Assembly (NCBI RefSeq): GCF_003944755.1
Contig: NZ_RWGU01000043.1
Location: forward strand, 1 to 64,000
Length of the DNA stretch: 64,000 nucleotides
Source of the DNA: Rhodovulum robiginosum
GTDB lineage: Bacteria > Pseudomonadota > Alphaproteobacteria > Rhodobacterales > Rhodobacteraceae
Direction of reading: 5' to 3'
This document shows positions 19,061 to 33,930 of this stretch, piece by piece (positions within the stretch are counted from its first letter, which is position 1; each line of letters opens with the position of its first letter). Under the pieces are notes generated by a model. It was given only the letters and a program-made list of their open reading frames with translations, did not search any database and was not told the DNA's origin. The position numbers and the translations under genes are program-made.

Positions 19061-19064
19061 ACTG

Positions 19065-19156
19065 GAGTCATACCATTTTTGCTCATTTTGGCCTGTTTAC
19101 GCCTTTTTTTGCATCCAGTATGACTCAGAGTCATACGAAGTAACCCGGAGTCATAC
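19065..19156. repeat. GAGTCATAC repeats in the integrase promoter region
   Basis: GAGTCATAC occurs at 19065-19073, 19128-19136 and 19148-19156, and its inverse GTATGACTC at 19118-19126. The middle pair forms a perfect 19-base palindrome, GTATGACTCAGAGTCATAC. The last copy ends 4 bases before the integrase ATG. These may be integrase arm sites or an operator controlling int and the new dusA leader. Confidence 0.6.
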
Positions 19157-19160
19157 GAAA

Positions 19161-20246: not shown

Positions 20247-20285
20247 CCGCCCTGCCCGCTGGCGCGGGGCACCCACCAACACTCT

Positions 20286-20310
20286 GGCCCGCCAAATCGG
20301 CGGGCCTTTT
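20286..20310 (+). terminator. Rho-independent terminator after int
   Basis: GGCCCGCC and GGCGGGCC form an 8-base stem with a 5-base loop, followed by TTTTCCTT. It separates the integrase from the small-gene operon. The rest of 20247-20505 contains no gene that I can support. Confidence 0.8.
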
Positions 20311-20505
20311 CCTTGCCTGCGCCACGAAATCACCTTACGCGAATCACGCACCAGACCACGCAACCGTGTAAATTTGCAATGTCAAGCAAAATATGCTAGT
20401 GCTGACAATATCAGAGATGCAACCTTAGACCGGTCATATGTAGCCGCCGGGGTTGCCAAATTTCCCGACCATTGAGAGCGCCCGTGAGGGCGCAAGGAGT
20501 CGACC

Positions 20506-20802
20506 ATGAACCCTATCACCGCAACCTTGCGGTCAACCGACCTGTGCGCGCTTTTGAATGTCTGCGACCGGTCAATCTGGCGCTGGATGGACGGCGTCGC
20601 TGCCTTCCATGATTTTGGCCGTGCTCCGCGCGGACATATGTACGCCCTTCCCGAAGTCATTTCGCTCTTGCGCGCAAGGCGTAGGGCTGGACTTTCCGAC
20701 GACGAACTGGCCAGCGTCGTAACCCACGATACCGCCGAACGCGCAGAGCGGGCGGATACGCTTGGTTACCCCGATGACATTTGGCTTGGTGGTAGCCCTT
20801 AG
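20506..20802 (+). CDS. Helix-turn-helix protein, AlpA/MerR-like (ends at an in-frame TAG)
   Basis: 98 residues up to TAG, with a good ribosome binding site (AAGGAG, 7 bases ahead). The N-terminal half reads LRSTDLCALLNVCDRSIWRWMDG ... GHMYALPEVISLLRARR, the winged-helix pattern of AlpA/excisionase-type proteins. In phage satellites such proteins often control excision or early transcription. The same frame continues after the TAG for 90 more codons without a stop and with reasonable codon use (see next entry). The gene may thus be the front part of a 189-residue protein interrupted by an amber codon. Confidence 0.7.
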   Translation: MNPITATLRSTDLCALLNVCDRSIWRWMDGVAAFHDFGRAPRGHMYALPEVISLLRARRRAGLSDDELASVVTHDTAERAERADTLGYPDDIWLGGSP

Positions 20803-21075
20803 GCCCGCGCAGACGCCTTCAGGGCATCACTGGTTGGCAAGGAACTGGAGCGCGCGCGATCCGTCCAGAAGGCCGTGACCGGCGCTGCAATCGCCGCTGG
20901 CCTGCCGCGCGTCGAGCGCTTGCGTCAGATTACTCTGATCCATCCTGCCTGCGTCCGGTTTATCCTCGCGGGCGAAGCCAACGAATTGCCTGTAGGTGAG
21001 GCCGGATGGGCGGCGTGGATCAAGGCAATCGACGTTGTGAACATCCCCACCACTATCGAACAGGAGGCCGCATAA
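20803..21075 (+). pseudogene. In-frame continuation after the TAG (C-terminal half, possible restart at GTG 20875)
   Basis: Directly after the TAG at 20800-20802 the same frame runs ARADAFRASLVGKELERA, then GLPRVERLRQITLIHPAC and VRFILAGEANELPVGEAG, ending at TAA 21073-21075, one base before the next ATG. The tight junction with the next gene suggests this is the true end of the gene. Either a point mutation (for example CAG to TAG) split it, or the second half is made separately from the GTG at 20875, or the TAG is a sequence error. The function is unknown. Confidence 0.5.
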
Positions 21076-21531
21076 ATGGCCATTGAAGACATTCTTACCC
21101 ACCTTGATGACGAAGACCGTGAGCGCTTCACGCAGGCCGTGAGCGCCATTGGTAAGGCCTTTGAGGCGCAGACCTCAGTTGCCGTCCAGCCGGAGTCTAT
21201 CGTCGGCCTGAATGCCGTTAGGGACTATGTCTTGACCGGTGGCGAGATCGAATTGGACCTGAGCGCCGCAATCACCGAATTGCAGGAAGACCCCAAGGTC
21301 AGCAACGCCCTGATTGCCGCTCAGGCGAAGGTTGCTGAAGCGAACAAGATTGCCAGCGACACCGCGAACATGAGCCGAACCGAACGCATGAATTATGCAC
21401 GCGCAAACGGCCTCGACAAGCCGCGACCGGATACCACCAGCAGCATGACCCGAAACGAACATGACGCCGTTCTGGCGGGCCTCAGCCCGATCCAGCGTAT
21501 GAACTATGCCCGCCGCCACGGCCTGACGTGA
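21076..21531 (+). CDS. Hypothetical protein with repeated MNYAR motif
   Basis: 151 residues, not recognised. An acidic N-terminus (MAIEDILTHLDDEDRERF) is followed by a helical middle rich in Ala. The C-terminal third holds two copies of the same motif: SRTERMNYARANGL and SPIQRMNYARRHGL, 38 residues apart. Such R-M-NYAR-G-hinge repeats resemble short motifs in phage structural or scaffold-like proteins, but I cannot name a family. Its start follows the previous stop immediately and its end overlaps the GTG/ATG region of the next gene, so it belongs to one operon. Confidence 0.6.
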   Translation: MAIEDILTHLDDEDRERFTQAVSAIGKAFEAQTSVAVQPESIVGLNAVRDYVLTGGEIELDLSAAITELQEDPKVSNALIAAQAKVAEANKIASDTANMSRTERMNYARANGLDKPRPDTTSSMTRNEHDAVLAGLSPIQRMNYARRHGLT

Positions 21532-21542
21532 GGAAGCCCAAG

Positions 21543-21779
21543 ATGACCGTTGAAGACATTATTCAGACGATCCGCAAGGATCACGCCGGGGCGTGGCACA
21601 TGCTTTTCCAGATCACCGAAGGCGGGCACAAGTTTCTGCCGAGTGGCCACGTCTTGACCCCGGCGGCATACTTGGCAGTGGCACGTGCGTTTGGATCCCA
21701 CGAAAACCCGGTGGAACTGTCCGCCGAAGACCGTAAGCGGAACGAGCTTCAGGCGAAGGCGGAGGCAAAGAATGGCTAG
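21543..21779 (+). CDS. Hypothetical small protein
   Basis: 78 residues from the ATG at 21543 (AGGA 8 bases upstream); a GTG start at 21528 overlapping the previous stop is the alternative. The sequence starts MTVEDIIQTIRKDHAGAWHML, similar in opening to the gene before it (MAIEDILTHL), and ends in a charged helix (DRKRNELQAKAEAKNG). It overlaps the next gene by 8 bases. Not recognised; operon position suggests a phage-like accessory role. Confidence 0.5.
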   Translation: MTVEDIIQTIRKDHAGAWHMLFQITEGGHKFLPSGHVLTPAAYLAVARAFGSHENPVELSAEDRKRNELQAKAEAKNG

Positions 21780-21987
21780 CATTCTCGACGAAAACCCCGG
21801 ATTTGTCGGCAGTTTTTGCGATGACAAGCCCAGTAAGGAAGAAAAGCTCCACCGCCGCCACCGTCGCGAGAAGCTGGAAAAGGCGATGGAAAAGCGGGCG
21901 AATTTCTCTGAGGCCGATTTCGCTGCCGAAGAGGCGCGCATCGCCGAACAGATTGCCGAATGGGAGCGCACCCGCGATGCCGCGTAG
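21772..21987 (+). CDS. Hypothetical small coiled-coil protein
   Basis: 71 residues, overlapping the previous gene by 8 bases. After MASILDENPGFVGSF it is almost entirely charged and helical (KEEKLHRRHRREKLEKAMEKR, then FSEADFAAEEARIAEQIAE). It may be a small coiled-coil or nucleic-acid-associated protein. No family is recognised. Confidence 0.5.
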   Translation: MASILDENPGFVGSFCDDKPSKEEKLHRRHRREKLEKAMEKRANFSEADFAAEEARIAEQIAEWERTRDAA

Positions 21988-22180
21988 CGTTACCCTGCGT
22001 AATACCCCTGCAACTTTCGACGCGGCCAAGTATCTGCGCGGGCGTGAACGTATGCAGCGCCGAGCCGCCCTCTGGCACGCCGCACGTCTGGCTTGCGACG
22101 AGGAAGGGCAGTTCCGTGCCTCTTGGCCTGCCATCGGTCGCGCCGTCGCAGCCCAGCTTCAGCGCGAGGGATTGGGCTAA
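21977..22180 (+). CDS. Hypothetical small basic protein
   Basis: 67 residues, overlapping the previous gene by 11 bases. It is basic (RGRERMQRRAALWHAARLA) and ends QLQREGLG. No family is recognised. The next gene starts 116 bases later. Confidence 0.4.
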   Translation: MPRSVTLRNTPATFDAAKYLRGRERMQRRAALWHAARLACDEEGQFRASWPAIGRAVAAQLQREGLG

Positions 22181-22296
22181 GCCCCTTCAAATGAACCGGC
22201 GGCGGTTGCCCACGACCGCCGCTCATACCGCCGGGGCAGGTTTTTGCGATACGCGCCCCGGCGGACCTATCAGCAGCAAAGGACAGGACTACCAAA

Positions 22297-22746
22297 ATGA
22301 TCCACATGACGCTCAAGATGCGCGCGCAGCTTTACCTCGCCATGACGCAGGCGCTGGACGTGACCGACGATCCGCAGACCCCGGAAGAAGCGCAGCGATT
22401 GGCCCTGTGCGAGCTTGTCGCCGACTACAGCGGCGGTGACGGACCGTATGCGCTGCACGAAGCTTTCCGACTGGCGGATGCGATGGACTACTACCTGACC
22501 GAACACGCGGAGGCAGGTCCCCACGGGTTCAGCGTGGCGAACGTCGCCCGTCTTGTTGGCGGCGACCGGGATACCGCGAAGGCGGCGTTGCGACTTCTGG
22601 GGGCGCGACCGACTTATGATCCGGAAGGGCCGGACGATTGGTCGACCGGTCCTAGGCAGAGGGACGATTCGATTCGTTTTCCGCGCGACCTTCTTGCTGA
22701 GTACATCCGACTCGAATTGGAAGAGGCCGAGGGGTTCGCCGCCTGA
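22297..22746 (+). CDS. Hypothetical protein with a possible helix-turn-helix
   Basis: 149 residues, acidic overall. The segment FSVANVARLVGGDRDTAKAALRLLGA near residues 74-100 has the look of a helix-turn-helix, which would fit a DNA-binding accessory replication or control protein. The ribosome binding site AAAGGA is rather far (about 13 bases) from the ATG. A 6-base inverted repeat with a 5-base loop (GCCTGA/TCAGGC) overlaps the stop but has no T-run. Not recognised. Confidence 0.5.
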   Translation: MIHMTLKMRAQLYLAMTQALDVTDDPQTPEEAQRLALCELVADYSGGDGPYALHEAFRLADAMDYYLTEHAEAGPHGFSVANVARLVGGDRDTAKAALRLLGARPTYDPEGPDDWSTGPRQRDDSIRFPRDLLAEYIRLELEEAEGFAA

Positions 22747-22949
22747 TTGCTTCAGGCTGTAACATTCCGTTACCTCCGAAAGCTCAGCTTGAAGCAAAAT
22801 AGAGGTGTCATGGCACCCCATGTGCGATGGGTAAATTCGGCTTCAAGCACAATTATACAGCCTTATCAATTACTTGACCTGTGAGGTCCATTGCCGAGGG
22901 GCGCGAGTCCGAGTAGTCTGCGGGCATCTCAATGAAAGGTGACAAACAC

Positions 22950-23420
22950 ATGAACGACCGCGACACGGCCCTGATTTTGGCCACCAACATGATGAAGGAA
23001 ACTGCGGAGAAGAGCGCGACGAAGAGCTGCGCCACCTTGCATGCAAGGTTACGGAACTGGCGGGCGAAAGCAATGATCCACACTAGGCCCAAGGAAAGCG
23101 ACGACTTTGCGAGCGCCGAAATTGCCGTGTGGCAAGCGACTGGGTGTCCGTTGCCGCGCGAGGTGTTCGAAGAATTTCGGGACGTCGCTGACCCCGAGGC
23201 CCGGATTCATCATATGTGTGCCGCAGCTATTGCCACGGCAGATTGCGAACTGGAAACGCTGATCGAAAACAAGATCGACGCGTATCTGGAAGACTGCGCG
23301 GCGGCGCATGCGCGCGGTGACCATCTCGACAAGTTGGCTAATCTGGCAGCGAACGCGGAGGACAAGCCTGTCTTCCGTGGGCGGAGGAAGCGCGTACAGG
23401 TGTCGGGAGTACCTGTTTGA
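22950..23420 (+). CDS. Hypothetical protein before the replication gene
   Basis: 156 residues from the ATG at 22950, preceded by AAAGGTG; an in-frame ATG 18 bases earlier is the alternative. It contains an MNDRDTALILATNMMKETAEK helix and a long helical acidic middle (CELETLIENKIDAYLEDC), ending with a basic tail (FRGRRKRVQ). Nothing in it is recognised. It lies just upstream of the replication ATPase gene and could be a loader or cofactor, which is inference only. Confidence 0.5.
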   Translation: MNDRDTALILATNMMKETAEKSATKSCATLHARLRNWRAKAMIHTRPKESDDFASAEIAVWQATGCPLPREVFEEFRDVADPEARIHHMCAAAIATADCELETLIENKIDAYLEDCAAAHARGDHLDKLANLAANAEDKPVFRGRRKRVQVSGVPV

Positions 23421-23512
23421 ACTGGTGAAGGCCCGCGTGACGCGGGCCACCGCCAACCAAGGAAAGGAGCCGAACCGATGCTAACCAACTGACTGTGAGA
23501 AGGAGAAGCAAA

Positions 23513-25600
23513 TTGGAGAAGACTGAAACTGGGCAGATTACGATTGTCGGCAACGTGCGCGCGTCTGATGGCACGAAGAAGGTTCTGAACGAACTGACCG
23601 ACAAGCACTGTGAGAAGATCAAGAAGTGCGAACCGCTGACCTATGCCGATACGATGGCCAAGGAGTGGAAGGCGACGCCCCAGACCGTTGACCTCGCGGT
23701 CATGCTGGCGGGATTGATCAAGAGTGGCGAAGGCGAGGTTTCCATTCGCAATTTCATGACCACCATGAAGGCTCGTTGGCCCGCGCTGGACATGCCGTAC
23801 CTCAAGAACGTTCGGGGCGCGGCAAACGTAATCCTCGACGCTGAGAGGCGCGCAGCAGCGAAGGGCGGCGACACGAATGTTATTGACGAAGACGACTTTC
23901 AGGCCCTCTGCAACTACGCTCTGACCACCATTGAGCGCGATAACCGCTGGACGCCGAAGCTCTTCAAGCGTGACGGCCAGTGGGTGGAAATCCAGTACAT
24001 GGGTGAGACGGGTACCGCGACGACCGTTCCGTTGGATCGTGATACGTTTGCGGCGCGTTTGAACCTTTCAACGTTTTGGCGCAAGCGCGTGGGCGACGGC
24101 ACGTCGTTTCGGTATGTTAGTGCGCCTAAGGACGTGGTGAACCAGATTTTCTATCACGCGGAAAAGCCGGTTCCTGAGCTGTATGGCGTAATCTATGCGC
24201 CCGTGTTCACGGCGGAGGGCGATTTGATCATTACGCCGGGGTACCACAAGTCAGGCTTCTATTACGCTCCGCCGGAAGGTTTGGATGTGCCGCGTCCGCC
24301 GCGCAAGATCACCGAAGAGCATCTTGCCGAAGCCCGCGAGACCATTCTCGACATCTTCGTTAACTTTGAAATGGACGGCGTTAGCCGTGCCGAACTGGAA
24401 GAGGCTGTGCTGCGCCTCCTTGGCAATAAGAAGTGGGGAAGCGGTGAAGGTGCGACTGCCGTACCGCCGTCCTTCCTGTCCGCAGTCGGCTTCCTGCTGG
24501 AACAGATCGTGCGCCCGATGATCAACGGTCCGGTTATGCCGCTTCTGATTTCCAAGACGGCACGGCGCGCAGGTGGGGGGCTGCTGGCGACGGTGATGCA
24601 GACGGTAATCCGTGGAACCGCCGGGATGCGTCCGCTTGCCGGGAACGAAGAGGAACGGCGCAAGGCGATCTTGGCCGCGCTTTCGTCGGGGACTTCCGTC
24701 ATCGCTTGGGACAATCTCCCCACGGGACGGACCATCAATTCCCCGACCTTGGCGACCCTTTTCACGGAGGGCCTGTATATCGACCGCGAGCTTAAGACGA
24801 GCGTCGAACGGGCAATCCCGGTTCGCGCATCCTTCATGCTTGTGGGTAACCGCCCGCCCTTCAGTGATGAACTGATGCAGCGTCTGTCGCTCTTGGAACT
24901 GTTGCCCCAGACGGCAGCACCGGAAAAGCGTACTGGATGGAAGCATCCTGACTTGCAGGCTCACGTAGAAGAAAACCGTGGGCGTATCCTTGGCGCGCTT
25001 TTGGTTCTGGTGAAGCATTGGCTGAACGAGGGACAGCCGAAGCCGAAGCACCCGCCCGTGATCGGTCGTTTTGAGCGGTATCGTCATGTGATTGGTGGCA
25101 TCCTTGAAGCGGCGTCGCCTAACTGGACGAGCTGGCAGAGCAATCGTGATAAGCTGGCGAAGGTCGCCAAGGATGATGAAGAGGACGGTTGGACCGATCT
25201 GTTCGAAGCATGGGCGGACGAACGCGGACTCGGCCTTGCAGGAAAGATCGAGGTCAACGAATTGGCCCAGATCGCACAGGAAAACGAAACGCCGCTGGAT
25301 GTAGCTCGCGTCAAGGAAGGCGGAGCGTTCGAGTACAATACTCGGTCACTGAGCCGGTCACTGTCTGGGATGCAGGAACGCATCTTTGATCTGGGCAAGC
25401 ACGGCGAAGCAAAGCTCATGCAGTCGGAAAAGCGGGGCAAGGGTGGTTACCCTTGGTACCTCGAAAAGGTGGAGACTCGCAGTGAACCTGTGCAGAGCGA
25501 ACAGGTAGAGCCGACGCGTGTTGGGCGCGGTCGCAGGCGTAGGGTATCAAAGAATGTCCTTGACGCGTGTAAGTACGATGGAGGGGACAAGGCGGCGTAA
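23513..25600 (+). CDS. Phage/satellite replication ATPase (AAA+ helicase-like)
   Basis: 695 residues if it starts at TTG 23513, which has AGGAG 7 bases upstream; GTG 23495 gives 701. A four-codon ORF (ATG-CTA-ACC-AAC-TGA, 23478-23492) with its own AAAGGAG lies just before it. Around residues 340-460 an AAA+-like core is seen: ISKTARRAGGGLL in the Walker A place (degenerate, no GKT), VIAWDNLP in the Walker B place and FMLVGNRPPFSDEL as sensor 1. This is the pattern of the helicase part of primase-helicase proteins of phages and integrative elements. The N-terminal half is not recognised. It probably replicates the excised element; a cluster of iterons follows. Confidence 0.65.
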   Translation: MEKTETGQITIVGNVRASDGTKKVLNELTDKHCEKIKKCEPLTYADTMAKEWKATPQTVDLAVMLAGLIKSGEGEVSIRNFMTTMKARWPALDMPYLKNVRGAANVILDAERRAAAKGGDTNVIDEDDFQALCNYALTTIERDNRWTPKLFKRDGQWVEIQYMGETGTATTVPLDRDTFAARLNLSTFWRKRVGDGTSFRYVSAPKDVVNQIFYHAEKPVPELYGVIYAPVFTAEGDLIITPGYHKSGFYYAPPEGLDVPRPPRKITEEHLAEARETILDIFVNFEMDGVSRAELEEAVLRLLGNKKWGSGEGATAVPPSFLSAVGFLLEQIVRPMINGPVMPLLISKTARRAGGGLLATVMQTVIRGTAGMRPLAGNEEERRKAILAALSSGTSVIAWDNLPTGRTINSPTLATLFTEGLYIDRELKTSVERAIPVRASFMLVGNRPPFSDELMQRLSLLELLPQTAAPEKRTGWKHPDLQAHVEENRGRILGALLVLVKHWLNEGQPKPKHPPVIGRFERYRHVIGGILEAASPNWTSWQSNRDKLAKVAKDDEEDGWTDLFEAWADERGLGLAGKIEVNELAQIAQENETPLDVARVKEGGAFEYNTRSLSRSLSGMQERIFDLGKHGEAKLMQSEKRGKGGYPWYLEKVETRSEPVQSEQVEPTRVGRGRRRRVSKNVLDACKYDGGDKAA

Positions 25601-25700
25601 GTGCTGCGGTGCCGCGTTCGCGGCTGCCACCCGGCAGGCGTTCGCGGCCTTCTGCATGTCAGGCCCGCAAGAAACTAGCGAGGGGCGTCAAGCCCCTTCA

Positions 25701-25959
25701 ATACGGCCCTAATACGGTGAGAATCCGGTGCCTAATACGGTAATGAATTTCCTTTAATTATAAGCCGTTATGCCTTTCGACCGTATTCACCGTATTAGAA
25801 TCATCAATCATCCCCTAAAGAAAAACACTTTTCCTGCTAGAGTCTTCGATCCCAAAGGGCCGATCCACGCTCGAACATCGCGCCAAATACGAAATTTCGC
25901 ATAAGGCACGGATTTTATTAAGATTTTCGACCGTACCCGGAGCCGTATTTAGACCGTAT
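25701..25959. repeat. Iteron-like cluster of CCGTAT/ATACGG repeats, candidate replication origin
   Basis: CCGTAT or its complement occurs at 25701, 25712, 25735, 25781, 25791-, 25943 and 25954, with a degenerate copy (CCGTAC) at 25931. Longer forms are CCTAATACGGT at 25708-25718 and 25731-25741 and ACCGTATTAG at 25789-25798, so the first three face the next two across an AT-rich stretch (25741-25770). A second AT-rich stretch (about 25875-25930) precedes the last three. The layout of oriented short repeats flanking AT-rich DNA right after a replication gene fits an origin. There is no gene in 25601-26085. Confidence 0.55.
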
Positions 25960-26085
25960 CACGGGCTTCGCCCTTCGTCGCTGGCCCGCTACGCCGTGAG
26001 GTTGGCGCAGAGAGATCGGCGTGCACAAATTTTTCAATTCCCACCACTTGACGTCACGGCCACGCATACCCACCATATATTGTGT

Positions 26086-26218
26086 GTCCATGGTCGCCAT
26101 GGCGTCATACGTGAAGCTGGACCTGTCCATGCGGATCGCGCGCCAAGGGGATCACGCCAAGGTGGCGGTTGCCGCCGAGGTGTCTGTCGTCGCGGCCCTG
26201 CCGTGCGCAGTGGATGGG
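26086..26218 (+). repeat. 133-bp direct repeat, copy 1
   Basis: Identical to 26441-26573 except for one base (C at 26197, A at 26552). It begins GTCCATGGTCGCCATGGCG and ends GTGCGCAGTGGATGGG. One frame is open through it (MVAMASYVKLDLSMRIARQG...), with GC-rich third positions as in a coding sequence, and continues about 50 codons beyond in this copy. Sequence similarity weakens but is still visible for about 15 bases after the repeat. It could be coding, structural RNA, or both. Confidence 0.9.
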
Positions 26219-26440
26219 CCAAGCCTGACCGTTGGCTTCGATGCTGTGAATACACCGTCAGATGGCGGACCCCAAGCAGCGGATAAGCTTTCGACGCGGC
26301 GGGTGCGGCCGGGGCGGAAAGCGCTTGACATTGCCAAAAACCTGTTAGGGTGGAAGGTGGAGAAATGTGTGAACTTGCCCCGAAAAACCGGCTCGCCTGA
26401 GCTGGCTTTCCGGCGTGTGCGCTTGCGTATTCGCCGCAGC

Positions 26441-26573
26441 GTCCATGGTCGCCATGGCGTCATACGTGAAGCTGGACCTGTCCATGCGGATCGCGCGCCA
26501 AGGGGATCACGCCAAGGTGGCGGTTGCCGCCGAGGTGTCTGTCGTCGCGGCACTGCCGTGCGCAGTGGATGGG
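26441..26573 (+). repeat. 133-bp direct repeat, copy 2, just upstream of the reverse transcriptase
   Basis: Second copy, 355 bases downstream of the first and ending 51 bases before the ATG of the reverse transcriptase. The open frame of the repeat is here in frame with the reverse transcriptase, so a start at 26446 would add a 60-residue N-terminal extension. The only difference from copy 1 is a third-position change (GCC to GCA, both Ala). Several short hairpins are possible (for example GGCGGTTGCCGCC). The segment between copies (26219-26440) holds no recognised gene. Confidence 0.9.
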
Positions 26574-26624
26574 TGCCCGTCAACGGTCGGGTTTGTATGT
26601 ACGGGGAACCCGAGCGGAGAACAT

Positions 26625-27959
26625 ATGAAGACGCTCTTCCAAGAAGTACGTAGTGAGCAGAACATTTTTTCAGCTTGGAGACACGTCAAGCGAAGTGCGC
26701 TTACGTCCGGCAACCCAGATATTCGTGGAAAAGCGGCGGAGTTCGAGCATTCCCACCAAAGGCACCTGAAACGGATCATTGCCCAACTGCGCGAAGGCCG
26801 CTTCCAATTCGACCCCGTAGAAGGAGTCCTAAAAGATAAAAAGAAACGCCTTGCCATGGGCAAAGACCCACGTCCGATTGCTATCGCGACGATTCAAAAT
26901 CGCGTCGTTCAACGGGCTATTCTGCAGGTTTTGCAGCCTCGGATAGCACGGGACGTTCGAAATCCTGAAACTCGGTACGAAACGACTAGGGATGATCGGC
27001 TTGGTAAGATCAACGATGTGAACCGGTCAAAGTATGGCGTCGGCGGATTGATCTACCCATATGGCGGCGTGAGACCTGCTATTGAGCGCATCACAGAAGC
27101 AATCGACAATGGGGCTAAGTATTTTTACCAGTCCGACATCCGGTCATTCTTTACGAAGATCCCCACCGGGGACGTGGTGGGGTTCGTCAGGCGTGAAACG
27201 AGAGATGACGAACTCGCCGATTTGTTCCGAAGTGGTCTGGAAGTTCATCTTGGAAATGAAGACGAGCTGATCGGATACACCGACCTCTTCCCGAAGGGCG
27301 GAATAGGGGTGGCTCAGGGATCATCGCTTTCGGCATTCGCAGGAAACGTTCTTCTTTTCGATATGGACCAGCGGTTGAACGCGATGGGCGTGACTTCGGT
27401 CCGATACATCGACGACATTCTAATGGTTGCTCCCGATGAGACAACGCTGGACACCGCAAAAGACTTCGCAGAGACGACGCTGACCGAACTTGGTTTTGGC
27501 CTGTACAGGCCAGAAGATGGTCCAGACAAGGCGGCACGCGGTGAGTGCAGCAAAGCTATCAACTTCTTGGGCTGTACGATCCAACCGAAACGGTGCGTTC
27601 CCAGCCGCACTTCGATTGAGAATATCAAGGCGAGTGTCCGGGAGGCACTGTCGACGTCAAAGGCCGCGATCAAGGAAGCCACACGAAAAGGCGGCGGTCT
27701 GAACCCGAGCCGGTCACAGAGCGCGACTCTAGCCGCATTAGGAAAGCGGGTGTACGGGTGGCAGAAATCTTTCGCGTTCTGTAACCAAAGGCAGCCTTTT
27801 CAGCACGTTGACGACTTTGTTTCCTCTCAAGTCGTCGACTATCAGGGGTTCGTCTCACGCCAACTGTCAAAGGTGGGGCCGATTGAGAAAATGATGATCC
27901 TAGGCGTACCTTCGACAGCGCAGATGTTCGATCAGGGCCTGCCGCCAGAAGGTGACTAA
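26625..27959 (+). CDS. Reverse transcriptase (stand-alone, unassigned class)
   Basis: 444 residues from the ATG at 26625 (GGAG 6-9 bases ahead). The fingers/palm motifs are intact: RPIAIATIQNRVVQRAILQVLQP, catalytic Asp in YQSDIRSFF (about residue 170), GVAQGSSLSAFAGNVLL (about 230) and YIDD (about 261) followed by the INFLGCTIQP block. After the palm there is a 120-residue helical thumb-like region and no maturase or HNH endonuclease domain, so it is not a group II intron protein. The fourth motif reads QGSSLS rather than the S-Q form of diversity-generating retroelements. It may belong to the defence-related (DRT/UG) or retron-like groups. An unusual duplicated sequence lies upstream. Confidence 0.85.
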   Translation: MKTLFQEVRSEQNIFSAWRHVKRSALTSGNPDIRGKAAEFEHSHQRHLKRIIAQLREGRFQFDPVEGVLKDKKKRLAMGKDPRPIAIATIQNRVVQRAILQVLQPRIARDVRNPETRYETTRDDRLGKINDVNRSKYGVGGLIYPYGGVRPAIERITEAIDNGAKYFYQSDIRSFFTKIPTGDVVGFVRRETRDDELADLFRSGLEVHLGNEDELIGYTDLFPKGGIGVAQGSSLSAFAGNVLLFDMDQRLNAMGVTSVRYIDDILMVAPDETTLDTAKDFAETTLTELGFGLYRPEDGPDKAARGECSKAINFLGCTIQPKRCVPSRTSIENIKASVREALSTSKAAIKEATRKGGGLNPSRSQSATLAALGKRVYGWQKSFAFCNQRQPFQHVDDFVSSQVVDYQGFVSRQLSKVGPIEKMMILGVPSTAQMFDQGLPPEGD

Positions 27960-28327
27960 CCGTCCCGGCGACCTCCTCTAAGGCATTTTGCAACACTCTC
28001 GTGCTCAACGCGTGGCATTGATAATGCCTAAAGCGCTTGATCTGCATTTGAGATCGCCATGCCCCAATGACTCTGCGCCGTTTTTTGCCACAGGCATCGC
28101 CCTAGTGACTCTCGCCCGTTTTTCGTTTTCGTGGAGCATTTCAGCCGATTAAAGCTGTGCATGGAATTGGGCAGCACGCCGCGTTGGTCCGTTCCTTGGC
28201 ATCTGACCGAAGGGGTTCTGGTGAAGCTGACATTTACTTAAGATACTGAAAAGACTCGCGAATCCTCTAATTTGGCGTTACAAATTGGACTACCGTTCCC
28301 TAGGCCATTTTGGAAATGAGGCATAGC
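27960..28327. other. Non-coding gap between reverse transcriptase and serine recombinase with repeats
   Basis: No gene is visible. It contains a perfect 15-base palindrome GGCATTGATAATGCC at 28014-28028 and, further on, two related strings about 40 bases apart, TGACTCTGCGCCGTTTTTT and TGACTCTCGCCCGTTTTTC. These might be recombination (res-like) sites for the adjacent serine recombinase, or an RNA terminator region for the reverse transcriptase. The evidence is only the repeats and their position. Confidence 0.35.
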
Positions 28328-29005
28328 ATGAAGATCGTGACGTACATCCGGGTCAGCACCGACAAGCAAGGCCGCAGTGGGTTGGGTTTGGAGGCGCAGC
28401 GCGCCGCAATCGCGGCCTATGCTAAGGCTACCAGCGCTGTCACGGTGTCGGAATTTCAAGAGGTGGAGTCGGGGCGAAAGAACACACGCCCTGAGCTACA
28501 GAAAGCCCTCAAGCATGCTCGTGTGACCGGCTCGCGGCTTGTCATCGCCAAGCTGGACCGTCTTAGCCGGAATGCGGCCTTTCTTCTGAACCTGCAGGAG
28601 TCCGGGGTTGATTTCGTCGCCTGCGACATGCCGGAAGCCAATGCTATGACCGTGGGCATCATGGCAGTGGTGGCGCAGGCTGAGGCAAAGGCGATCAGCG
28701 ACCGCACCAAAGCTGCGATGAGGGCCGCTAGAGAGCGCGGACAGACGTTCGGCAACCCTTATGGCGCAGCTCCCCTGCGTTGCGCTGGGAAGGGGAACGC
28801 AGCATCTGTACAAGCGATGCAGGAGCGGGCTGACGCCCGCGCGCATGACCTTGCAGAAGTATTGGAAGACCTTGAAGCCTGCGGGTTCACGACGCTACAG
28901 GCGCAGGCGAACGAACTTAACAAGCGCGGTATCAGGACAGCGCGCGGTGGACGCTGGCACGCATCCAGCGTTTCGAACCTCCGGAAACGGCTTGAGGCAG
29001 CATAA
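28328..29005 (+). CDS. Serine recombinase (resolvase/invertase family)
   Basis: 225 residues from MKIVTYIRVSTDKQG, with the catalytic Ser at residue 10. The further landmarks of the resolvase domain are GLGLEAQRAAI, EVESGRKNTRPELQKAL, LVIAKLDRLSRNAAF and the long helix region AEAKAISDRTKAAMRAARERG. The C-terminus has a recombinase-type DNA-binding segment (LQAQANELNKRGIRTARGGRWHASSVSNL). The gene looks intact. It is either a second integration/resolution function of this element or the mark of a second element nested in it. Confidence 0.93.
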   Translation: MKIVTYIRVSTDKQGRSGLGLEAQRAAIAAYAKATSAVTVSEFQEVESGRKNTRPELQKALKHARVTGSRLVIAKLDRLSRNAAFLLNLQESGVDFVACDMPEANAMTVGIMAVVAQAEAKAISDRTKAAMRAARERGQTFGNPYGAAPLRCAGKGNAASVQAMQERADARAHDLAEVLEDLEACGFTTLQAQANELNKRGIRTARGGRWHASSVSNLRKRLEAA

Positions 29006-29030
29006 GGCGACATGGCGCGTAGGTGGGACG

Positions 29031-29321
29031 ATGCTGCCTGCGTCAGCAGGCAGTGATCTACCAGCCTTCGATGTGTGTAAGGTCTCGTTTTTGTTTGAGC
29101 TTCCGGGGACCCAGAGACGGGGTATACGTCATTCTTCGGAGCACTTGCAGTGCCTGCCGACAGACGTGCAACCAGATTTGGCAACTATTGTTGCTCTGGG
29201 CACAAGATATGCCCATTGGGTTGCAAGCTCTGAATTGATCGTCGGTGTTAGGAATGCGCTCAAGAGGGACCCGCCGGACACGACTAGGGGCCTGTTTGAA
29301 ATTCGAATGCGCCGAAAGTAA
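29031..29321 (+). CDS. Hypothetical protein after the serine recombinase
   Basis: 96 residues from the ATG at 29031, with AGGTGG 6 bases upstream and 25 bases after the recombinase stop. The sequence starts MLPASAGSDLPAFDVCKVSF and ends in a basic tail (GLFEIRMRRK). No family is recognised. A terminator 157 bases downstream closes this transcription unit, which supports a real gene, but a chance frame is possible. Confidence 0.4.
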   Translation: MLPASAGSDLPAFDVCKVSFLFELPGTQRRGIRHSSEHLQCLPTDVQPDLATIVALGTRYAHWVASSELIVGVRNALKRDPPDTTRGLFEIRMRRK

Positions 29322-29477
29322 GTTCCAGATTTCCGTCGAATAGAGTTGCGCTGCGCCGCAGAAACCGCACCGCGCGTTCGCTAGGTGCAGCGCCTGTCCC
29401 GTGGTAGAATGTGAGGGCAGTCAGCGGCCTGTCTACGGGCCGTCGCGCGGTGTCTTCTCCATCTTCCGCGCATCACT

Positions 29478-29515
29478 AGCGGGGCGGCGTTTTCTGTCCG
29501 CCGTCCCGCTTTTTC
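29478..29515 (+). terminator. Rho-independent terminator
   Basis: AGCGGGGCGGCG and CGCCGTCCCGCT form a 12-base stem with one G-T pair, a 9-base loop and a following TTTTT. It separates the recombinase unit from the convergent restriction-modification gene. Confidence 0.8.
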
Positions 29516-29555
29516 TCATCGGTTCAGATAGGCCTTCGACGCCCCCACAAGCGGT

Positions 29556-32420
29556 CTACTGCTTCGCCGCCCGCTCCTGATTGAGACGGAAGAGGCGGGC
29601 AAGGATTTCGTCGTCGGTCAGCTTGCCGTCGCGCCAGTCGTCGCCCCAGCCGTAGGCCTCTGCGACGGCTTCACCCAGCTTCTTATGGGCATGGTCCAGC
29701 CATGCGGGGCGGGCGTTATAGAGGTTGGTCAGGGTGCGCTTCTTGAGTTCCTTTGCGGCCTTGTCGTCTTTCGGTATCAGCCGGTCAGGGTAGCCTTCGA
29801 CCACCTCCGGGACCTTGTCCACGAGGTCAGGCGGGTTCAGCCAGTTTTCGCGCAGGCGGTTCAGCTCTGCGGCGGCTTCGGCGATCTTTTGGGCGCGGGG
29901 GTCGTCTGCATAGTCGGTTGCGGGAATATCTGGGGTCAAGCCTTCCGGAAATGGGAAGGTTTCGAAGGTCGTGGATGGTGTGTAGCGCGGGTCGTTTCCT
30001 TTGCCGAGGAAAGTTCCCATGCGAAGTGCCCATAGTTCGTGAAACTTCGAATGGAGAATACCGAAACTTGTGTCGTCGTCTCGGCCGATCCCGATGGCTC
30101 CATCATCAAGGGAGGCACCTTCATGGAGCCAGCTATAAAGCCGGTACTTCGCCACACGAGGCGTTGCAATAAACCTTGGTCTTCCCAGCACCGCAGCACG
30201 CAGACCGGGTGCGGTTTCTGAGTGTAGCCAATAGTGAATCCGCCGCCACTCACGGCGGTTCTTGTCTCGTATCGGCTTCACGTGCTCAAGAACATGCTGG
30301 AAAGGGCCTTCGAATAAGGCAGCATCTCCTTCGGATACGCCGTGGCCGAAGTCGATGACCCACCGGTCTTCGAAGCGACGTGCGAGGTCTGTGCCCGTAA
30401 AACGTCGGTGGATCACCTCTGCATTACGCTTTCCGTTAGGATTGGTCGGCATTGCGATGAAGGCACGAGCGGTTGCGCCGTCAAGGTCGAAAGGCCCCCC
30501 CTTCTTTGTACCGAGAAATGCGACACGCTTATTCTCATTGAGACGGGACGCTCGTGTGAGGTCGATGCCGCCGTCGCTCGCAGATAGATCGGAATAGATT
30601 TCCTTGACTGGAAGGCCGTTGAGTTTCGGCGCGCGGTCAATCCTGTTACCGAAGCAGATCATTGAGACGCGGACGGCTGCGCCTTCAACAGTCCATTCCT
30701 CGTCGCTCCAAGCTTCGAAGATTTCACCGTTAGAGACTATCGGTTTGAGCGTTTCCCGATTTGCACCACCGCGAATAGAATTGGTGGTAACCAATCCGGC
30801 AGCCGTGAGCGTTCCCTCTTCGATCATTTGCCAAGCCTTGGCGACCCAGTAGACAACTAGATCGGTTGCGCCGGACACCTCTGGCCAAGCCTTTGTTAAG
30901 GCGGCATTGTAATCCTCACCCAACTCCGACAATCGTTTATACACTCCGAGAAACGGCGGGTTCCCGACGACAACGTCCGCATCGGGCCAGTCTGCTTTGG
31001 AGCCGTCCGGGGCAAGCACCGCGTCCCGGTTCTCGATAGTGCCCAATGGACGAAGGATTGGATTTCGAGCGGCGTCGAAACCGTTGCGGCGCATCCACTG
31101 GATTTCTCCGACCCAGACTGACACACGCGCCAGCTCGGCGGCGTAGGGGTTGAGTTCGATCCCCTTTACGCATTCCGGACCGATGGTCGGGAAGCCGCGT
31201 GGAAGACCCAAGGCCTCGGCCTCAAGGTTTGTGCGGTGTTCGATGTCCTTGAGCGCCAAGAGAGACAGGTACAGGAAGTTGCCGGACCCGCAAGCCGGGT
31301 CCAGCACGCGGAAGCCCCTCAGACGCTCCAGAAACGCCGCGTGAAGGCGCTCCGCCTCTTTCTCGGCCTTGGTTCGGGCAGAGCGCGACTTAGCGCTCTC
31401 CGCCTTGCTCAGCGCCGCTTCGATTTGGCCTTTCACCTCGGCCCATTCGGCAAGCAACGGCTCCACCACCACCGGGTTGACGATTTGCATGATCTTGTCG
31501 CGGTCGGTGTAGTGCGCGCCAAGCTGCGAGCGCTTGTCCGGGTCAAGCCCGCGTTCAAACAGGGTTCCCAGAATGGAGGGGTCGATTTCGGACCAGTCGA
31601 GCTTGGCGGCGGCAAGAAGGTCCGCCAAGTCGTCCTTTTCGAGCGGCAGGGCGGTATCGTCATCGAAGAGACCACCGTTAAACCATTCGACTTTTTCGAA
31701 GCCGACGCGCCCGCCAGACTGCATCGCGGCGAAGAGGTCCTTGGCGAAGGGCTGGAATTCGGTCGGGTCCTTCTGGCACAGTTCCAGCATTTTCTGGAAC
31801 ATCTTATTCGGCAGAAGGTCCACGTCTTCGGCGAACATGCAGAACACAAGCCGGTTCACGAAATGCGCGACGGTTTCCGGGTCGTGACCGCGCTCGCGCA
31901 GACGCTGGGCGAGCGACGCGAATTTCTGCGCCGCCTCTTCGGTCAGGGCCTGCCGCGTTTTGGCGGGGCGCAGGCTTTCGGGATCGGTGAAGCAGGCGCG
32001 CAGGAGGTCGCGCTTGCTGGCGTCCAAAAGGTCGGGCGTGGTGATTTCATGGACTTGCTGAACGGTGTTCGTCCAGTTCGTCTGAATCCGGATGCGCGTC
32101 ATGTCCGACACGATCAGGAGCGGCGGGTTTTCCAGCGCGATGGAATATTGCAGGAGTTGGTCGAAGGCTTTGTCGAGGTCCTTCTTTTTGCCCTTGTACT
32201 CCCATGCGAAGCAGCCCTTGCGCCAGACGTCTGCCCAGCCTTCGCCGCCCGAGGTCTTGGACGCGCCACGTTCGAAGGTGAACCAATCGCCCTTTGGATC
32301 GGCGGATACCGGGTCTTCAATGCCAAGGAGCGCGCAGAGGTCGAGGAAATGCGCCTGCGATGCGCTCCGTTCCTTCAGCTCCGCCGCTTCCCATTTTTTG
32401 ATAAAATCCGCCGCCTGCAT
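29556..32420 (-). CDS. Type II single-chain restriction-modification enzyme (MmeI/type IIL-like)
   Basis: 954 residues from MQAADFIKKWEAAEL, with GGGTGAGCG ahead of the ATG. An N-terminal PD-(D/E)XK nuclease is seen in GWADVWRKGCFAWEYKGKKKDL (Asp and Glu-Tyr-Lys near residues 60-76). A helical linker follows, then an amino-methyltransferase with motif I LDPACGSGNFL (about 373) and motif IV NPPF (about 486), and a C-terminal target-recognition region with FPFPEGLTPD. One protein thus both methylates and cuts DNA. No separate specificity or restriction subunit is nearby. The gene looks complete. Defence against phage is the likely role on this element. Confidence 0.88.
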   Translation of the reverse strand: MQAADFIKKWEAAELKERSASQAHFLDLCALLGIEDPVSADPKGDWFTFERGASKTSGGEGWADVWRKGCFAWEYKGKKKDLDKAFDQLLQYSIALENPPLLIVSDMTRIRIQTNWTNTVQQVHEITTPDLLDASKRDLLRACFTDPESLRPAKTRQALTEEAAQKFASLAQRLRERGHDPETVAHFVNRLVFCMFAEDVDLLPNKMFQKMLELCQKDPTEFQPFAKDLFAAMQSGGRVGFEKVEWFNGGLFDDDTALPLEKDDLADLLAAAKLDWSEIDPSILGTLFERGLDPDKRSQLGAHYTDRDKIMQIVNPVVVEPLLAEWAEVKGQIEAALSKAESAKSRSARTKAEKEAERLHAAFLERLRGFRVLDPACGSGNFLYLSLLALKDIEHRTNLEAEALGLPRGFPTIGPECVKGIELNPYAAELARVSVWVGEIQWMRRNGFDAARNPILRPLGTIENRDAVLAPDGSKADWPDADVVVGNPPFLGVYKRLSELGEDYNAALTKAWPEVSGATDLVVYWVAKAWQMIEEGTLTAAGLVTTNSIRGGANRETLKPIVSNGEIFEAWSDEEWTVEGAAVRVSMICFGNRIDRAPKLNGLPVKEIYSDLSASDGGIDLTRASRLNENKRVAFLGTKKGGPFDLDGATARAFIAMPTNPNGKRNAEVIHRRFTGTDLARRFEDRWVIDFGHGVSEGDAALFEGPFQHVLEHVKPIRDKNRREWRRIHYWLHSETAPGLRAAVLGRPRFIATPRVAKYRLYSWLHEGASLDDGAIGIGRDDDTSFGILHSKFHELWALRMGTFLGKGNDPRYTPSTTFETFPFPEGLTPDIPATDYADDPRAQKIAEAAAELNRLRENWLNPPDLVDKVPEVVEGYPDRLIPKDDKAAKELKKRTLTNLYNARPAWLDHAHKKLGEAVAEAYGWGDDWRDGKLTDDEILARLFRLNQERAAKQ

Positions 32421-32668
32421 TCGCTCACCCGAAATCTTTTCGGGATTTCTAGCACTTGGAAGGAAGAGAAACCAGAAACACTTCGCGGCCAACGCGAGCG
32501 CTCAGGGAGCAACGAGGTATGACAACCAACGGGTTCCGGGAAGACGAAACCGACCCGTTGGAAGCTGACAAGCGGCCATCTACAAGCGTGCCGATGCGCA
32601 TCTGCCCCTCGGCATCGGTGGCCCTCCTGCGGCTGACACAGCGTCTGACGACAACGCGGAATGAATTG
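32421..32668. other. Gap between the TIR gene and the restriction-modification gene
   Basis: The 248 bases hold the leader of the restriction-modification gene. Short frames here have no family resemblance and no ribosome binding site. I see no RNA gene or repeat. Confidence 0.5.
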
Positions 32669-33385
32669 CTAAAGGTCGCTCAGCAATTCAGCGAGCTTCA
32701 CCGCGACATTTGCCATGGGGTCTTCTGTTGTGCTTAGGCCGCTTCGCGAACCAAGCATTGGGCTGATTTCGCGGAGCGCTTCATACGTAGTTTCATGCAC
32801 GATAGGAACGAGCAAGTCGCGCGCAAGGAGCACAGAAAGCTCTTTGTCTGCAATACCCTCACCTCTTATGCGCTCTAGGAACTTAGGTGTTACAAGCACG
32901 ATCCCGACGCGCGACTTCGCAAGACCTTTGTCGATTTCGCGTAGCAATGAAGAGCCAAGAAGCACGTCTTTCTCGCTGAACCATACAGTTACGCCGCGAG
33001 CCTCAAGCAAATCATGCAGTTCCTTAGCCGCCCCGCCCCGATCATCCCAAGCGTGACATAGAAATACGTCCCGAGACTCAGCCGGGGGCGTGCGTGTCTC
33101 GACGCTACGGCGGATCGGTGTGAGTGCTTGCACCTCAGCAGGCGTGTAACTTACTGACGAACCCGCTGGCGACCAGCGTGGTTTACTCCTACCAGAGCCG
33201 CCGCCACTCCGACCGCTGCTACTTACCGACCGGGCGCTGCTGTAGCCCGATGAGGAATAGCCCGGAGAGTACCCATAGCTGCGGTAACCGCCGCCGTATC
33301 CGCCATAGCGATTACGACATGCAGGGCATCTCGCCGCTGCGGCTGCTGAACGGTGACCGTTCACTGGTGCTGTACATCTAGCCAT
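32669..33385 (-). CDS. TIR-domain protein with Zn-motif and Gly/Tyr/Ser-rich N-terminus
   Basis: 238 residues from MARCTAPVNGHRS; a start 39 bases upstream is also open. The N-terminus has C-x6-H ... CPAC, a probable zinc site, followed by about 60 residues of low-complexity Gly, Tyr and Ser (YGGYGGGYRSYGYS...). The C-terminal TIR domain reads DVFLCHAWDDR, ELHDLLEARGVTVWFSEKDVLLGSSLLREIDKGL, VGIVLVTPKFL and the KELSVLL block holding the expected Glu. Bacterial TIR domains cleave NAD+ or make cyclic nucleotides in anti-phage defence. I see no obvious sensor gene beside it, so it may act alone. It is read in the same direction as the restriction-modification gene. Confidence 0.85.
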   Translation of the reverse strand: MARCTAPVNGHRSAAAAARCPACRNRYGGYGGGYRSYGYSPGYSSSGYSSARSVSSSGRSGGGSGRSKPRWSPAGSSVSYTPAEVQALTPIRRSVETRTPPAESRDVFLCHAWDDRGGAAKELHDLLEARGVTVWFSEKDVLLGSSLLREIDKGLAKSRVGIVLVTPKFLERIRGEGIADKELSVLLARDLLVPIVHETTYEALREISPMLGSRSGLSTTEDPMANVAVKLAELLSDL

Positions 33386-33610
33386 ACCACTACCATAAAT
33401 GGTGCCCCCGAAAGCATCAAGCACAAGTTGTAGAAGCAGGTGGTCACTTCGGCAACTCTGATTGAAAGTGGATTTTCAGCTTCAAGCCAACTTTTATCAC
33501 GCAAAATCAAATACTTGCAAGATGCTTCTCATGCTGCTACAAGGTTCACACCGAAACGCCAATGAAAGGAGAAAGAGCGATGAAACGAAACTGAGTAACG
33601 AGAAACAGAC

Positions 33611-33871
33611 ATGAAGACATTTTGGATGCTGGTGGCGCAGTACGAGGGGAAGACCGTTATCCCGGTGGACGTGGTAGTCAGTGACTACTTCCACCACCTC
33701 ACTCTGCCCAAGTTCTTGCGCAAGGTCTCCGATGGCAACATCAAGCTTCCGATAATGCGCATGGAAGATAGTCAGAAAAGCGCGAAGGGCGTAGATGTAC
33801 GCGACCTTGCCGCCTATCTCGACGAACGCCGCGAAGAGGGATTGCGCGAGTTTCGCCAGCTACATGACTGA
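33611..33871 (+). CDS. Pyocin activator PrtN-family protein
   Basis: 86 residues. The sequence follows the PrtN family closely: MKTFWMLVAQYEGKTVIPVD, SDYFHHLTLPKFLRKVSDGNI-LP and DSQKSAKGVDVRDLAAYLDERR. PrtN of Pseudomonas activates pyocin gene promoters; small PrtN-like proteins are also common in prophages and satellites as regulators. Its target here is unknown. It stands divergent from the TIR gene with a strong terminator right after it, so it is a single-gene unit. Confidence 0.85.
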   Translation: MKTFWMLVAQYEGKTVIPVDVVVSDYFHHLTLPKFLRKVSDGNIKLPIMRMEDSQKSAKGVDVRDLAAYLDERREEGLREFRQLHD

Positions 33872-33896
33872 CCAGACCGACCAGAAAGACCCTGAG

Positions 33897-33930
33897 AAAA
33901 AACGCCGCCGTTTTGGCGGCGTTTTTCTTT
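33897..33930 (+). terminator. Rho-independent terminator after the PrtN-like gene
   Basis: AAACGCCGCC and GGCGGCGTTT form a 10-base stem with a 5-base loop and a T-rich tail (TTTTTCTTT). Confidence 0.9.

What the first reader, a model, noticed from the sequence alone, without database searches (positions are those of the whole stretch)
26086..27959. Stand-alone reverse transcriptase behind a 133-bp near-perfect duplication: candidate new RT-based system
The RT has all catalytic motifs (SDI, QGSSLS, YIDD) but no maturase, endonuclease or other fused domain, and it stands on an element with other defence genes. Upstream are two copies of a 133-bp sequence (26086-26218 and 26441-26573) that differ at one base only. 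The second ends 51 bases before the RT start and is in frame with it. RT defence systems and retrons use a structured RNA in exactly this place; in DRT2 an upstream RNA is copied repeatedly into concatemeric cDNA. The duplicated unit could be the template, a recent record of RT activity, or a duplicated coding module. The single difference is synonymous in the RT frame, which favours coding constraint or very recent origin.
Basis: partly seen in the sequence, partly recalled or inferred. Interest (0 to 1): 0.8.

Follow-up and report, generated by a model that had tools for sequence, protein, structure and literature searches.

The report
Reverse transcriptase beside a repeat-split gene
A bacterial enzyme that copies RNA into DNA sits behind two nearly identical 133-base repeats that are kept in its distant relatives and look like a small membrane-protein gene stored cut and out of order, which the enzyme may put back together.

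Summary
The duplication is real: 133 bp, one mismatch, twice in the genome. It is not a recent accident. The reverse transcriptase (RT) belongs to the wider clade of G2L4 RTs, known for DNA break repair. In 23 of 30 clade loci with enough upstream sequence the same array, repeat-spacer-repeat (R-S-R), lies just before the RT. RTs only about 30% identical share it; copies are 95% or more identical inside a locus (BLAST), though unrelated between distant loci. The R-to-R distance is 346-384 nt in all 23. R codes for protein. The S-to-R2 junction encodes a hydrophobic segment in 23 of 23; R1-to-S encodes the rest of a small protein. So the genome holds middle-end then start-middle: a permuted gene, whole only in a tandem array or circle of the unit. 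An Acinetobacter RT taken as an outgroup control also has R-S-R. Its three lineages have units divisible by three with one stop-free frame, the two signs used for Neo of DRT2. Best explanation: the RT copies the R-S-R transcript, transfers strands between repeats, and makes (R-S)n cDNA that restores the gene. Architecture and coding are shown; cDNA, function and defence are inferred. Rival: DNA recombination maintains two proteins sharing R.

The parts
26048..26076 (+). promoter-like P1 (TTGACG, 17 nt, CACCAT); predicted start 2 nt before R1
   Evidence: Promoter scoring: mean score 7.1 in 27 loci against 2.8 in 189 control windows, 12 of 27 above the control 95th percentile; predicted start within 4 nt of the first base of R1 in 19 of 23 clade loci (search limited to a 34-nt stretch). 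Prediction only.
26086..26218 (+). R1, first 133-nt repeat
   Evidence: Coding in frame offset 1; the same unit in 13 alpha loci.
26219..26440 (+). S, 222-nt spacer; its start continues the R1 frame, its end begins the membrane-segment frame
26325..26351 (+). promoter-like P2 in S (TTGACA, 15 nt, TAGGGT)
   Evidence: in 20 of 23 clade loci the best site in S has its predicted start 24-33 nt before the AAAAAC motif (not L034, L039, L040). Prediction only.
26365..26400 (+). short ORF 'x' (MCELAPKNRLA), one frame from the membrane-segment frame, running over the AAAAAC motif
   Evidence: Read from sequence; its role (leader or -1 frameshift) is inferred.
26383..26405 (+). AAAAAC motif followed at once by a hairpin (CCGGCTC-GCCT-GAGCTGG)
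   Evidence: A stem begins 0-2 nt after the five A in 22 of 23 clade loci, not in L046 (mean z -1.27, weak in single loci); in L032, L034, L039, L040, L049 and L056 the motif reads (A/T)TGCAAAAACGTGCCA.
26412..26462 (+). hydrophobic segment encoded across the S/R2 junction
   Evidence: hydropathy 2.06 in the R frame, below 0 in the other two.
26441..26573 (+). R2, second 133-nt repeat
26574..26624 (+). 51-nt leader between R2 and the RT, conserved in alpha relatives (0.78-0.83 identity in 11 loci)
26625..27959 (+). RT, 444 aa, wider G2L4 clade, YIDD

Best explanation
It is a cassette of about 1.9 kb: a promoter, R1-S-R2 and a G2L4-clade RT. Shown: (1) R-S-R is a conserved feature of this RT clade, with fixed geometry and homogenised copies; (2) R and the start of S code for protein, and the S/R2 junction encodes a membrane or signal segment, so the genome stores a small gene permuted, as [middle-end] then [start-middle]; (3) the upstream block is more conserved than the RT gene. 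Inferred: transcription from P1 begins at the first base of R1, giving RNA with R at its 5' end and again before the RT. The RT copies R2, S and R1 to the RNA's 5' end, the cDNA's R end re-anneals to R2 (strand transfer, as with the R region of a retrovirus; G2L4 RT is a strong strand annealer), and copying goes on, giving (R-S)n. In that product P2 drives the complete gene: start, membrane segment, R, S tail. By analogy with DRT2 the product would be a harmful membrane protein made on attack. R must stay identical because the transfer needs it.
For: R-S-R in 23 of 30 clade loci with upstream sequence; R 121-152 nt, S 211-247, R2 to RT 36-68 nt. Alpha loci: 0.69 edits between own copies against 7.53 between loci; R1 at least as close to its own R2 as to any other in 13 of 13, four being ties. 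R: nonsynonymous/synonymous 0.31-0.33 of expectation in one frame, above 1 in the others; first 108 nt of S 0.66, no stop in 13 of 13, while the other frames have stops in 13 of 13. Hydrophobic S/R2 junction in 23 of 23. Upstream more conserved than the RT: R 0.88-0.90, S 0.80-0.86, RT 0.67-0.70 nt identity to the window, 11 loci. Predictive test: the S motif alone, searched in IMG/VR, gave 4 stretches; 1 held an RT of the clade with R-S-R. Acinetobacter lineages: units 399, 378/381 and 387, one stop-free frame each; 0 to 0.5% of shuffles reach this. RTs are broken in 4 of 7 loci without R-S-R against 1 of 23 with it, Fisher p 0.0058. L006 (three R) holds the whole gene in its genome.
Against: No RNA, cDNA or phenotype was seen. 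G2L4 RT is reported to act in DNA repair. In 22 of the 23 clade loci the unit is not divisible by three, and in the one where it is (L040) the frame is not stop-free, so there is no endless frame in the clade. A genome copy already encodes [membrane segment-R2] and [R1-S tail], so two separate proteins would give the same coding signal. Homogenised tandem repeats can arise by ordinary recombination. L008 and L038 have an intact RT with one R; L050 has an intact RT and no recognised R. The S end shows no clear codon signal (0.91 of expectation; another frame 0.92) beyond its hydrophobicity. In most alpha loci the S-tail frame does not stop where it does in others, and in L040 it stops early. 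Promoters are predictions; covariation was weak. Loci are related, so counts are not independent.
Confidence: 0.42

Rival explanations
1. Two proteins share the R-coded domain: a cytosolic one (R1-S tail, from P1) and a membrane one (S end-R2, from P2), a regulator and effector pair or similar. DNA slippage and gene conversion keep the R copies alike; the RT is an independent repair enzyme in the same operon.
For: Most R copies have an in-frame ATG in their first 35 nt, so R1 could be translated alone. The number of R varies (1, 2 or 3), as DNA slippage would give. Where own copies differ, the differences show no clear polarity: 6 of 11 clade loci mainly in the 5' part of R, 5 elsewhere.
Against: It does not explain why such repeats were seen only beside RTs of this clade and its Acinetobacter relatives, why R1 begins at the predicted transcript start, why R stays 95% or more identical in all 23 loci, or why RT decay goes with loss of the array. 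L032 has no ATG at the start of R1, and L011 R1 is frame-shifted.
Confidence: 0.26
2. The whole gene is restored by DNA recombination between R1 and R2 (tandem amplification or an excised circle), a phase-variable switch; the RT takes part in the break repair or not at all.
For: L006 carries R-S-R-S-R; four single-R loci (L008, L016, L018, L021) keep the P1 flank and look like deletion products; G2L4 RT does microhomology end joining (PMC12337344, abstract and passages).
Against: Only 1 of 23 array loci has the expanded form. Single-R loci mostly have broken RTs (3 of 5), so deletion looks like decay rather than a switch. R1's coincidence with the predicted transcript start has no role here.
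Confidence: 0.13
3. The upstream region is a scaffold or template RNA of another kind, as in retrons or DRT9/DRT10: the RT binds it and copies a short stretch, and the coding signal is secondary.
For: High nucleotide conservation upstream; the AAAAAC-plus-hairpin motif kept across distant loci; DRT10 uses A-B-A' repeats to make tandem-repeat cDNA (PMC12632851, abstract and passages).
Against: R is clearly protein-coding; covariation is weak; repeats of 121-152 nt are far longer than the 2-4 nt of the DRT10 systems described in the passages; no Rfam match but one at chance level.
Confidence: 0.1
4. A retro-homing system like a diversity-generating retroelement: R1 as template, R2 as the 3' end of a target gene that is rewritten.
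For: Repeat length, adjacency to the RT and R2 at the end of a small ORF resemble the layout of template and variable repeats (recalled).
Against: R1/R2 differences are few and not confined to adenines; the RT has QGSSLS, not the DGR form of that motif (recalled). An Avd gene was not searched for.
Confidence: 0.04

Closest known systems
G2L4 reverse transcriptase of Pseudomonas aeruginosa (PDB 9d5x, 9d4s; PMC12337344, abstract and passages seen)
   Same: Best solved match (E 7e-51); same supported clade (99/99); YIDD; no intron RNA found. A closer relative on a P. aeruginosa plasmid record (L032, 49% to 9d5x) has R-S-R.
   Different: 33% identity; the window's RT is 2 residues shorter in the RT3a plug region and lacks its two conserved arginines. 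The published work deals with DNA repair; the word search of it found no direct repeats. The 9d5x locus itself was not found in IMG/VR nor, through L032, in the plasmid records, so its upstream region was not seen.
DRT2 with Neo (PMC12039810, passages seen)
   Same: Idea of a gene stored permuted before the RT and assembled as tandem-repeat cDNA; the Acinetobacter group meets the two published signs (unit divisible by three, one stop-free frame across junctions).
   Different: Different RT class (Drt2 model 40.6 bits, cut-off 390); long direct repeats in place of a folded template; in the window the unit is 355 nt and the gene finite; the 3' end of the gene, not the promoter, is what the junction restores.
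DRT10 / UG17 (PMC12632851, abstract and passages seen)
   Same: Repeat-flanked template (A-B-A') and re-annealing of the cDNA end; UG17 is the best named DRT model here (120 bits).
   Different: The generic RT model scores higher (127.8); no SLATT gene among the flanking ORFs scanned; repeats 121-152 nt instead of 2-4; YIDD instead of YVDD.

Membership tests
G2L4 RT | YIDD at the active site | tested here: met
   called distinctive in PMC4244168 (passage). Some clade-mates have YVDD (L034, L048), FADD (L049), FIDD (L040) or YLDD (L041).
G2L4 RT | groups with known G2L4 in a tree | tested here: met
   30-row clade with 9d5x, support 99/99; 14 control RTs, no other named RT classes in the tree.
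G2L4 RT | no group II intron RNA | tested here: met
   No group II match in 25600-28300.
G2L4 RT | 9-residue RT3a insertion with two conserved arginines | tested here: not met
   insertion 2 residues shorter, arginines absent. So filed as a member of the wider clade, not of the plug-bearing group.
G2L4 RT | end-joining and snap-back activity | not testable with these tools
   Needs purified protein.
DRT2 | Drt2 RT family | tested here: not met
   NF041746 40.6 bits, cut-off 390.
DRT2 | unit divisible by three, stop-free frame across junctions | tested here: not met
   Window unit 355 nt. Met in the Acinetobacter group L059/L071, L074, L075.
DRT10 / UG17 | UG17 RT with adjacent SLATT gene | tested here: not met
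   UG17 120 bits, below generic RT; the flanking ORFs scanned with Pfam gave no SLATT.
Group II intron | intron RT/maturase and ribozyme RNA | tested here: not met
   TIGR04416 116.7 bits, cut-off 300; no Rfam match.
Retron | retron RT family | tested here: not met
   St85 model 39.1 bits, cut-off 235; other retron types not tested one by one.
DGR | adenine-directed differences between repeats | tested here: not met

The most novel reading that the evidence does not exclude
A large clade of bacterial RTs, including relatives of an enzyme now read as a DNA-repair protein, are gene assemblers: each stores a toxic membrane-protein gene split by long identical repeats and rebuilds it as concatemeric cDNA by retrovirus-like strand transfer between repeats, so that direct repeats do the work that a folded RNA does in DRT2.
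Probability: 0.35. Interest if true: 0.95.

Novelty: new variant of a known kind. Interest (0 to 1): 0.84.

Why it matters
It would give the G2L4 RTs a template and a product, tie them to the RT defence systems, and show a second way of writing a gene through RNA that cannot be read from the chromosome. It makes an open question testable: what a stand-alone group II-like RT copies in the cell. Even if the RT is not the agent, a split gene whose repeats stay identical across RTs about 30% alike needs an explanation.

Tried and rejected
Recent duplication or a one-off record of RT activity: rejected, the array is shared by RTs only about 30% identical. Assembly artefact: unlikely, the array is in many assemblies and in complete plasmid records. 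Endless Neo-like frame in the window itself: tested, not present. Strong RNA covariation in R, S or the leader: not found. Known domain in the small protein: nothing significant in Pfam (one match, E 0.17, L034) or PHROGs (E 0.23 'holin', L056; E 0.1, L049). Structure of the small protein: AlphaFold2 mean pLDDT 56.7, pTM 0.25; only a beta-hairpin in R is fairly confident. Conserved partner gene: among 15 loci compared, no neighbouring ORF of 110 aa or more, besides frames on either strand of the R-S region, was shared by more than 4; those 4 are a small recombinase (L008, L010, L032, L056). Integration-site repeat near dusA: none of 13 nt or more. The first 18 nt of R searched alone in IMG/VR: 8 stretches, one being L005 again, the other 7 without RT or array. 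More relatives of L059, L074 or 9d5x in IMG/VR: none. An early impression that R1/R2 differences gather at the 5' end of R did not hold on recount (6 of 11 clade loci).

Rows dropped: L013, L015, L041 and L048 end before the array could be seen (L013 and L015 show one R at the contig end); L004 is an RT fragment at a contig start; L001-L003, L023, L025, L035, L037, L042-L044, L047 and L052 duplicate other loci. L077 holds a near copy of the L074 array in the opposite orientation to an RT fragment and was left out of the stop-free count; read on its plus strand it is not stop-free. The RT of L075 is frame-shifted although its array is intact. Four of the 14 control RT loci had under 550 nt upstream (L062, L063, L065, L068).

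Full report
OBSERVATION. The RT is 444 aa, with a whole active site and no second Pfam domain.

WHAT THE RT IS. By sequence the best solved relatives are the G2L4 RTs 9d5x and 9d4s (E 7e-51 and 1.5e-50). Among defence models a generic RT scores 127.8 and UG17 120; the models for group II intron RT, Drt2, retron St85 and Drt3a stay far under their cut-offs. In a tree of 44 RTs the window lies in a 30-row clade with 9d5x (support 99/99), apart from 13 of 14 control RTs. It has the YIDD that PMC4244168 calls distinctive of G2L4 (passage), but lacks part of the RT3a insertion and its two arginines (PMC12337344, abstract and passages), so I file it in the wider clade only. The clade is rare: with the window's genome counted, 4 of 398 genomes, 5 of 385 and 6 of 390 have a member at the thresholds used.

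THE ARRAY IS CONSERVED. One viral contig and 17 genome loci came from protein searches, further loci from plasmid and whole-genome searches and one from a motif search. In all, 34 distinct clade loci, the window included; 30 have enough upstream sequence. R-S-R stands in 23: 22 with two R, one (L006) with R-S-R-S-R. Five have a single R (L008, L016, L018, L021, L038) and two none recognised (L050, L051). The R-to-R distance is 346-384 nt, R 121-152, S 211-247, and R2 ends 36-68 nt before the RT (and the coordinates). P. aeruginosa L032, 32-35% identical to the window's RT, has 132 identical nt twice, unrelated in letters to the window's R.

COPIES EVOLVE TOGETHER. In 13 alpha loci own copies differ by 0.69 edits on average, copies of different loci by 7.53 (78 pairs, 6 identical); R1 is at least as close to its own R2 as to any other in 13 of 13, four of them ties. 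In the ten distant loci own copies differ by 0-7 edits. In the 11 clade loci whose copies differ, the differences lie mainly in the 5' part of R in 6 and elsewhere in 5, so I draw nothing from their place.

IT CODES. Among 10 distinct alpha R2 sequences, substitutions in one frame show a nonsynonymous/synonymous ratio 0.31 of expectation, 1.60 and 4.40 in the others. The first 108 nt of S, in the frame of R1, give 0.66 and no stop in 13 of 13, while both other frames have stops in 13 of 13. The S end gives 0.91 in the membrane frame and 0.92 in another, so no clear codon signal; but across the S/R2 junction the R frame encodes a 17-residue hydrophobic stretch (mean hydropathy at least 1.6) in 23 of 23 clade loci; over all 26 loci tested the R frame does so in 24, the other frames in 1 of 52. 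R with the S tail aligns as a protein even for L046, whose RT is 31% identical to the window's. The upstream block is also more conserved than the RT gene: R 0.88-0.90, S 0.80-0.86, RT 0.67-0.70 identity to the window in 11 loci; for L056 and L032 R2 is identical over 132 nt while the RT genes are 0.78. The constraint is therefore probably more than coding.

A PERMUTED GENE. In the genome R1 runs into the S tail, and S begins the membrane segment that runs into R2. The whole, start-membrane segment-R-S tail, is contiguous only where S-R-S exists: in a tandem array, a circle, or L006. In L011, L022, L032, L039, L045, L046, L049 and L056 the S-tail frame, read in the intact R frame, ends within about 20 nt of the start of the short ORF x; in most other alpha loci it reads on, and in L040 it stops early. 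The motif AAAAAC lies 53-69 nt before R2 in 23 of 23, with a hairpin directly behind it in 22. A short ORF with its own start runs over it one frame away from the membrane frame, which might mean a -1 frameshift; in L010 the membrane frame has a stop just at the motif, which fits that but does not prove it.

A BLIND TEST. The motif of the distant loci (ATGCAAAAACGTGCCAR), searched by itself in IMG/VR, gave 4 stretches. One, L056, encodes an RT 86% identical to L032 with a 138-nt repeat pair at 99.3%; the other 3 have neither.

A CONTROL THAT BECAME EVIDENCE. Of 14 RT loci taken as outgroups, 13 have no such repeats (4 with short upstream) and one, Acinetobacter L059, has R126-S273-R126 at 96.8%; the tree puts it next to the clade (96/94, on a long branch that makes the place unsure). 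Its relatives L071, L074 and L075 have it too; five other relatives, L072, L073, L076, L078 and L079, have none before the RT. Units are 399, 378 or 381 (R1- or R2-based) and 387 nt, and in each one frame of the joined unit has no stop; 0 to 0.5% of shuffles do as well. These are the two signs by which Neo was recognised in 42 DRT2 loci (PMC12039810, passages). Caution: part of the frame is an ordinary ORF already, since S carries an ATG and runs into R2.

TRANSCRIPTION. A promoter-like site before R1 scores 7.1 on average against 2.8 in control windows (12 of 27 above their 95th percentile), with a predicted start within 4 nt of R1's first base in 19 of 23. A second site lies in S, its predicted start 24-33 nt before the motif, in 20 of 23. 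Both are predictions.

LINK BETWEEN ARRAY AND RT. With R-S-R the RT is open in 22 of 23 (L046 runs open to its contig end); without it in 3 of 7 (Fisher p 0.0058; loci are related, and the RT of L075, outside this count, is broken beside an intact array). Among 15 loci compared no neighbouring ORF besides the R-S frames was shared by more than 4, so P1-R-S-R-RT looks like the whole cassette. It lies in what I read by eye as a Mu-like prophage contig (L005) and a filamentous-phage contig (L056; L032 is annotated with an inovirus-type protein), and in the window on an island with defence genes.

MECHANISM. A 5' end at R1 and the same R before the RT is the layout of a retroviral R region, which lets cDNA jump from the RNA's end to the other copy. 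G2L4 RT is described as a strong strand annealer and snap-back enzyme (PMC12337344, passages). DRT10 does the same with 2-4 nt (PMC12632851, passages) and DRT2 by jumping back to the start of its template (PMC12039810, passages). This explains the boundary, the identity, the coding across both junctions and the tie to the RT; each step from transcription to product is inferred. Against it: no molecule seen, a recorded repair role for G2L4, single-R loci with an open RT, and a two-protein reading that the coding data do not exclude.

LITERATURE. The 8 papers found with G2L4 and reverse transcriptase and the searches show no mention of these repeats in titles, starts of abstracts or the passages I saw. 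Of the 8 I word-searched five: PMC12337344, PMC13015716, PMC4424553 and PMC6013744 for direct repeats, and PMC4244168 only for group names (it holds 'direct repeats' once, not read). The other three I saw only in the listing. The first G2L4 repair paper (Cell 2022, DOI recalled) is not held and was not read, so a mention there is possible.

Noticed in passing
window 18050-34000: Island beside a dusA-like gene (name recalled): tyrosine integrase 19032-20246, MmeI-like restriction-modification enzyme 29556-32492, Thoeris ThsB-like TIR protein 32669-33424, small serine recombinase 28310-29005, PrtN-like regulator 33611-33871.
   Followed up: partly
L032 6414-8190; L056 3126-3689; window 28310-29005: A small recombinase lies near the RT in window, L032 and L056 (a related one also near L008 and L010), and a TIR gene in window and L032; L072 and L073 (another RT branch) also have an invertase or recombinase beside the RT, L073 a restriction enzyme too.
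   Followed up: partly
L040 1501-3204: Clade RT with a C-terminal extension that looks like RNase H (read by eye; only a defence-model scan was run on it).
   Followed up: no
L050 1092-1231 and 2849-2995: The RT stretch lies between two 82%-identical copies of the end of a neighbouring gene, as if inserted at a gene end.
   Followed up: no
L034, L048, L049, L040, L041: Clade RTs with YVDD, FADD, FIDD or YLDD in place of YIDD, so YIDD does not mark the whole clade.
   Followed up: no
L077 2001-3444: An Acinetobacter record holds an RT fragment with the R-S-R array in the opposite orientation, a rearranged copy.
   Followed up: no
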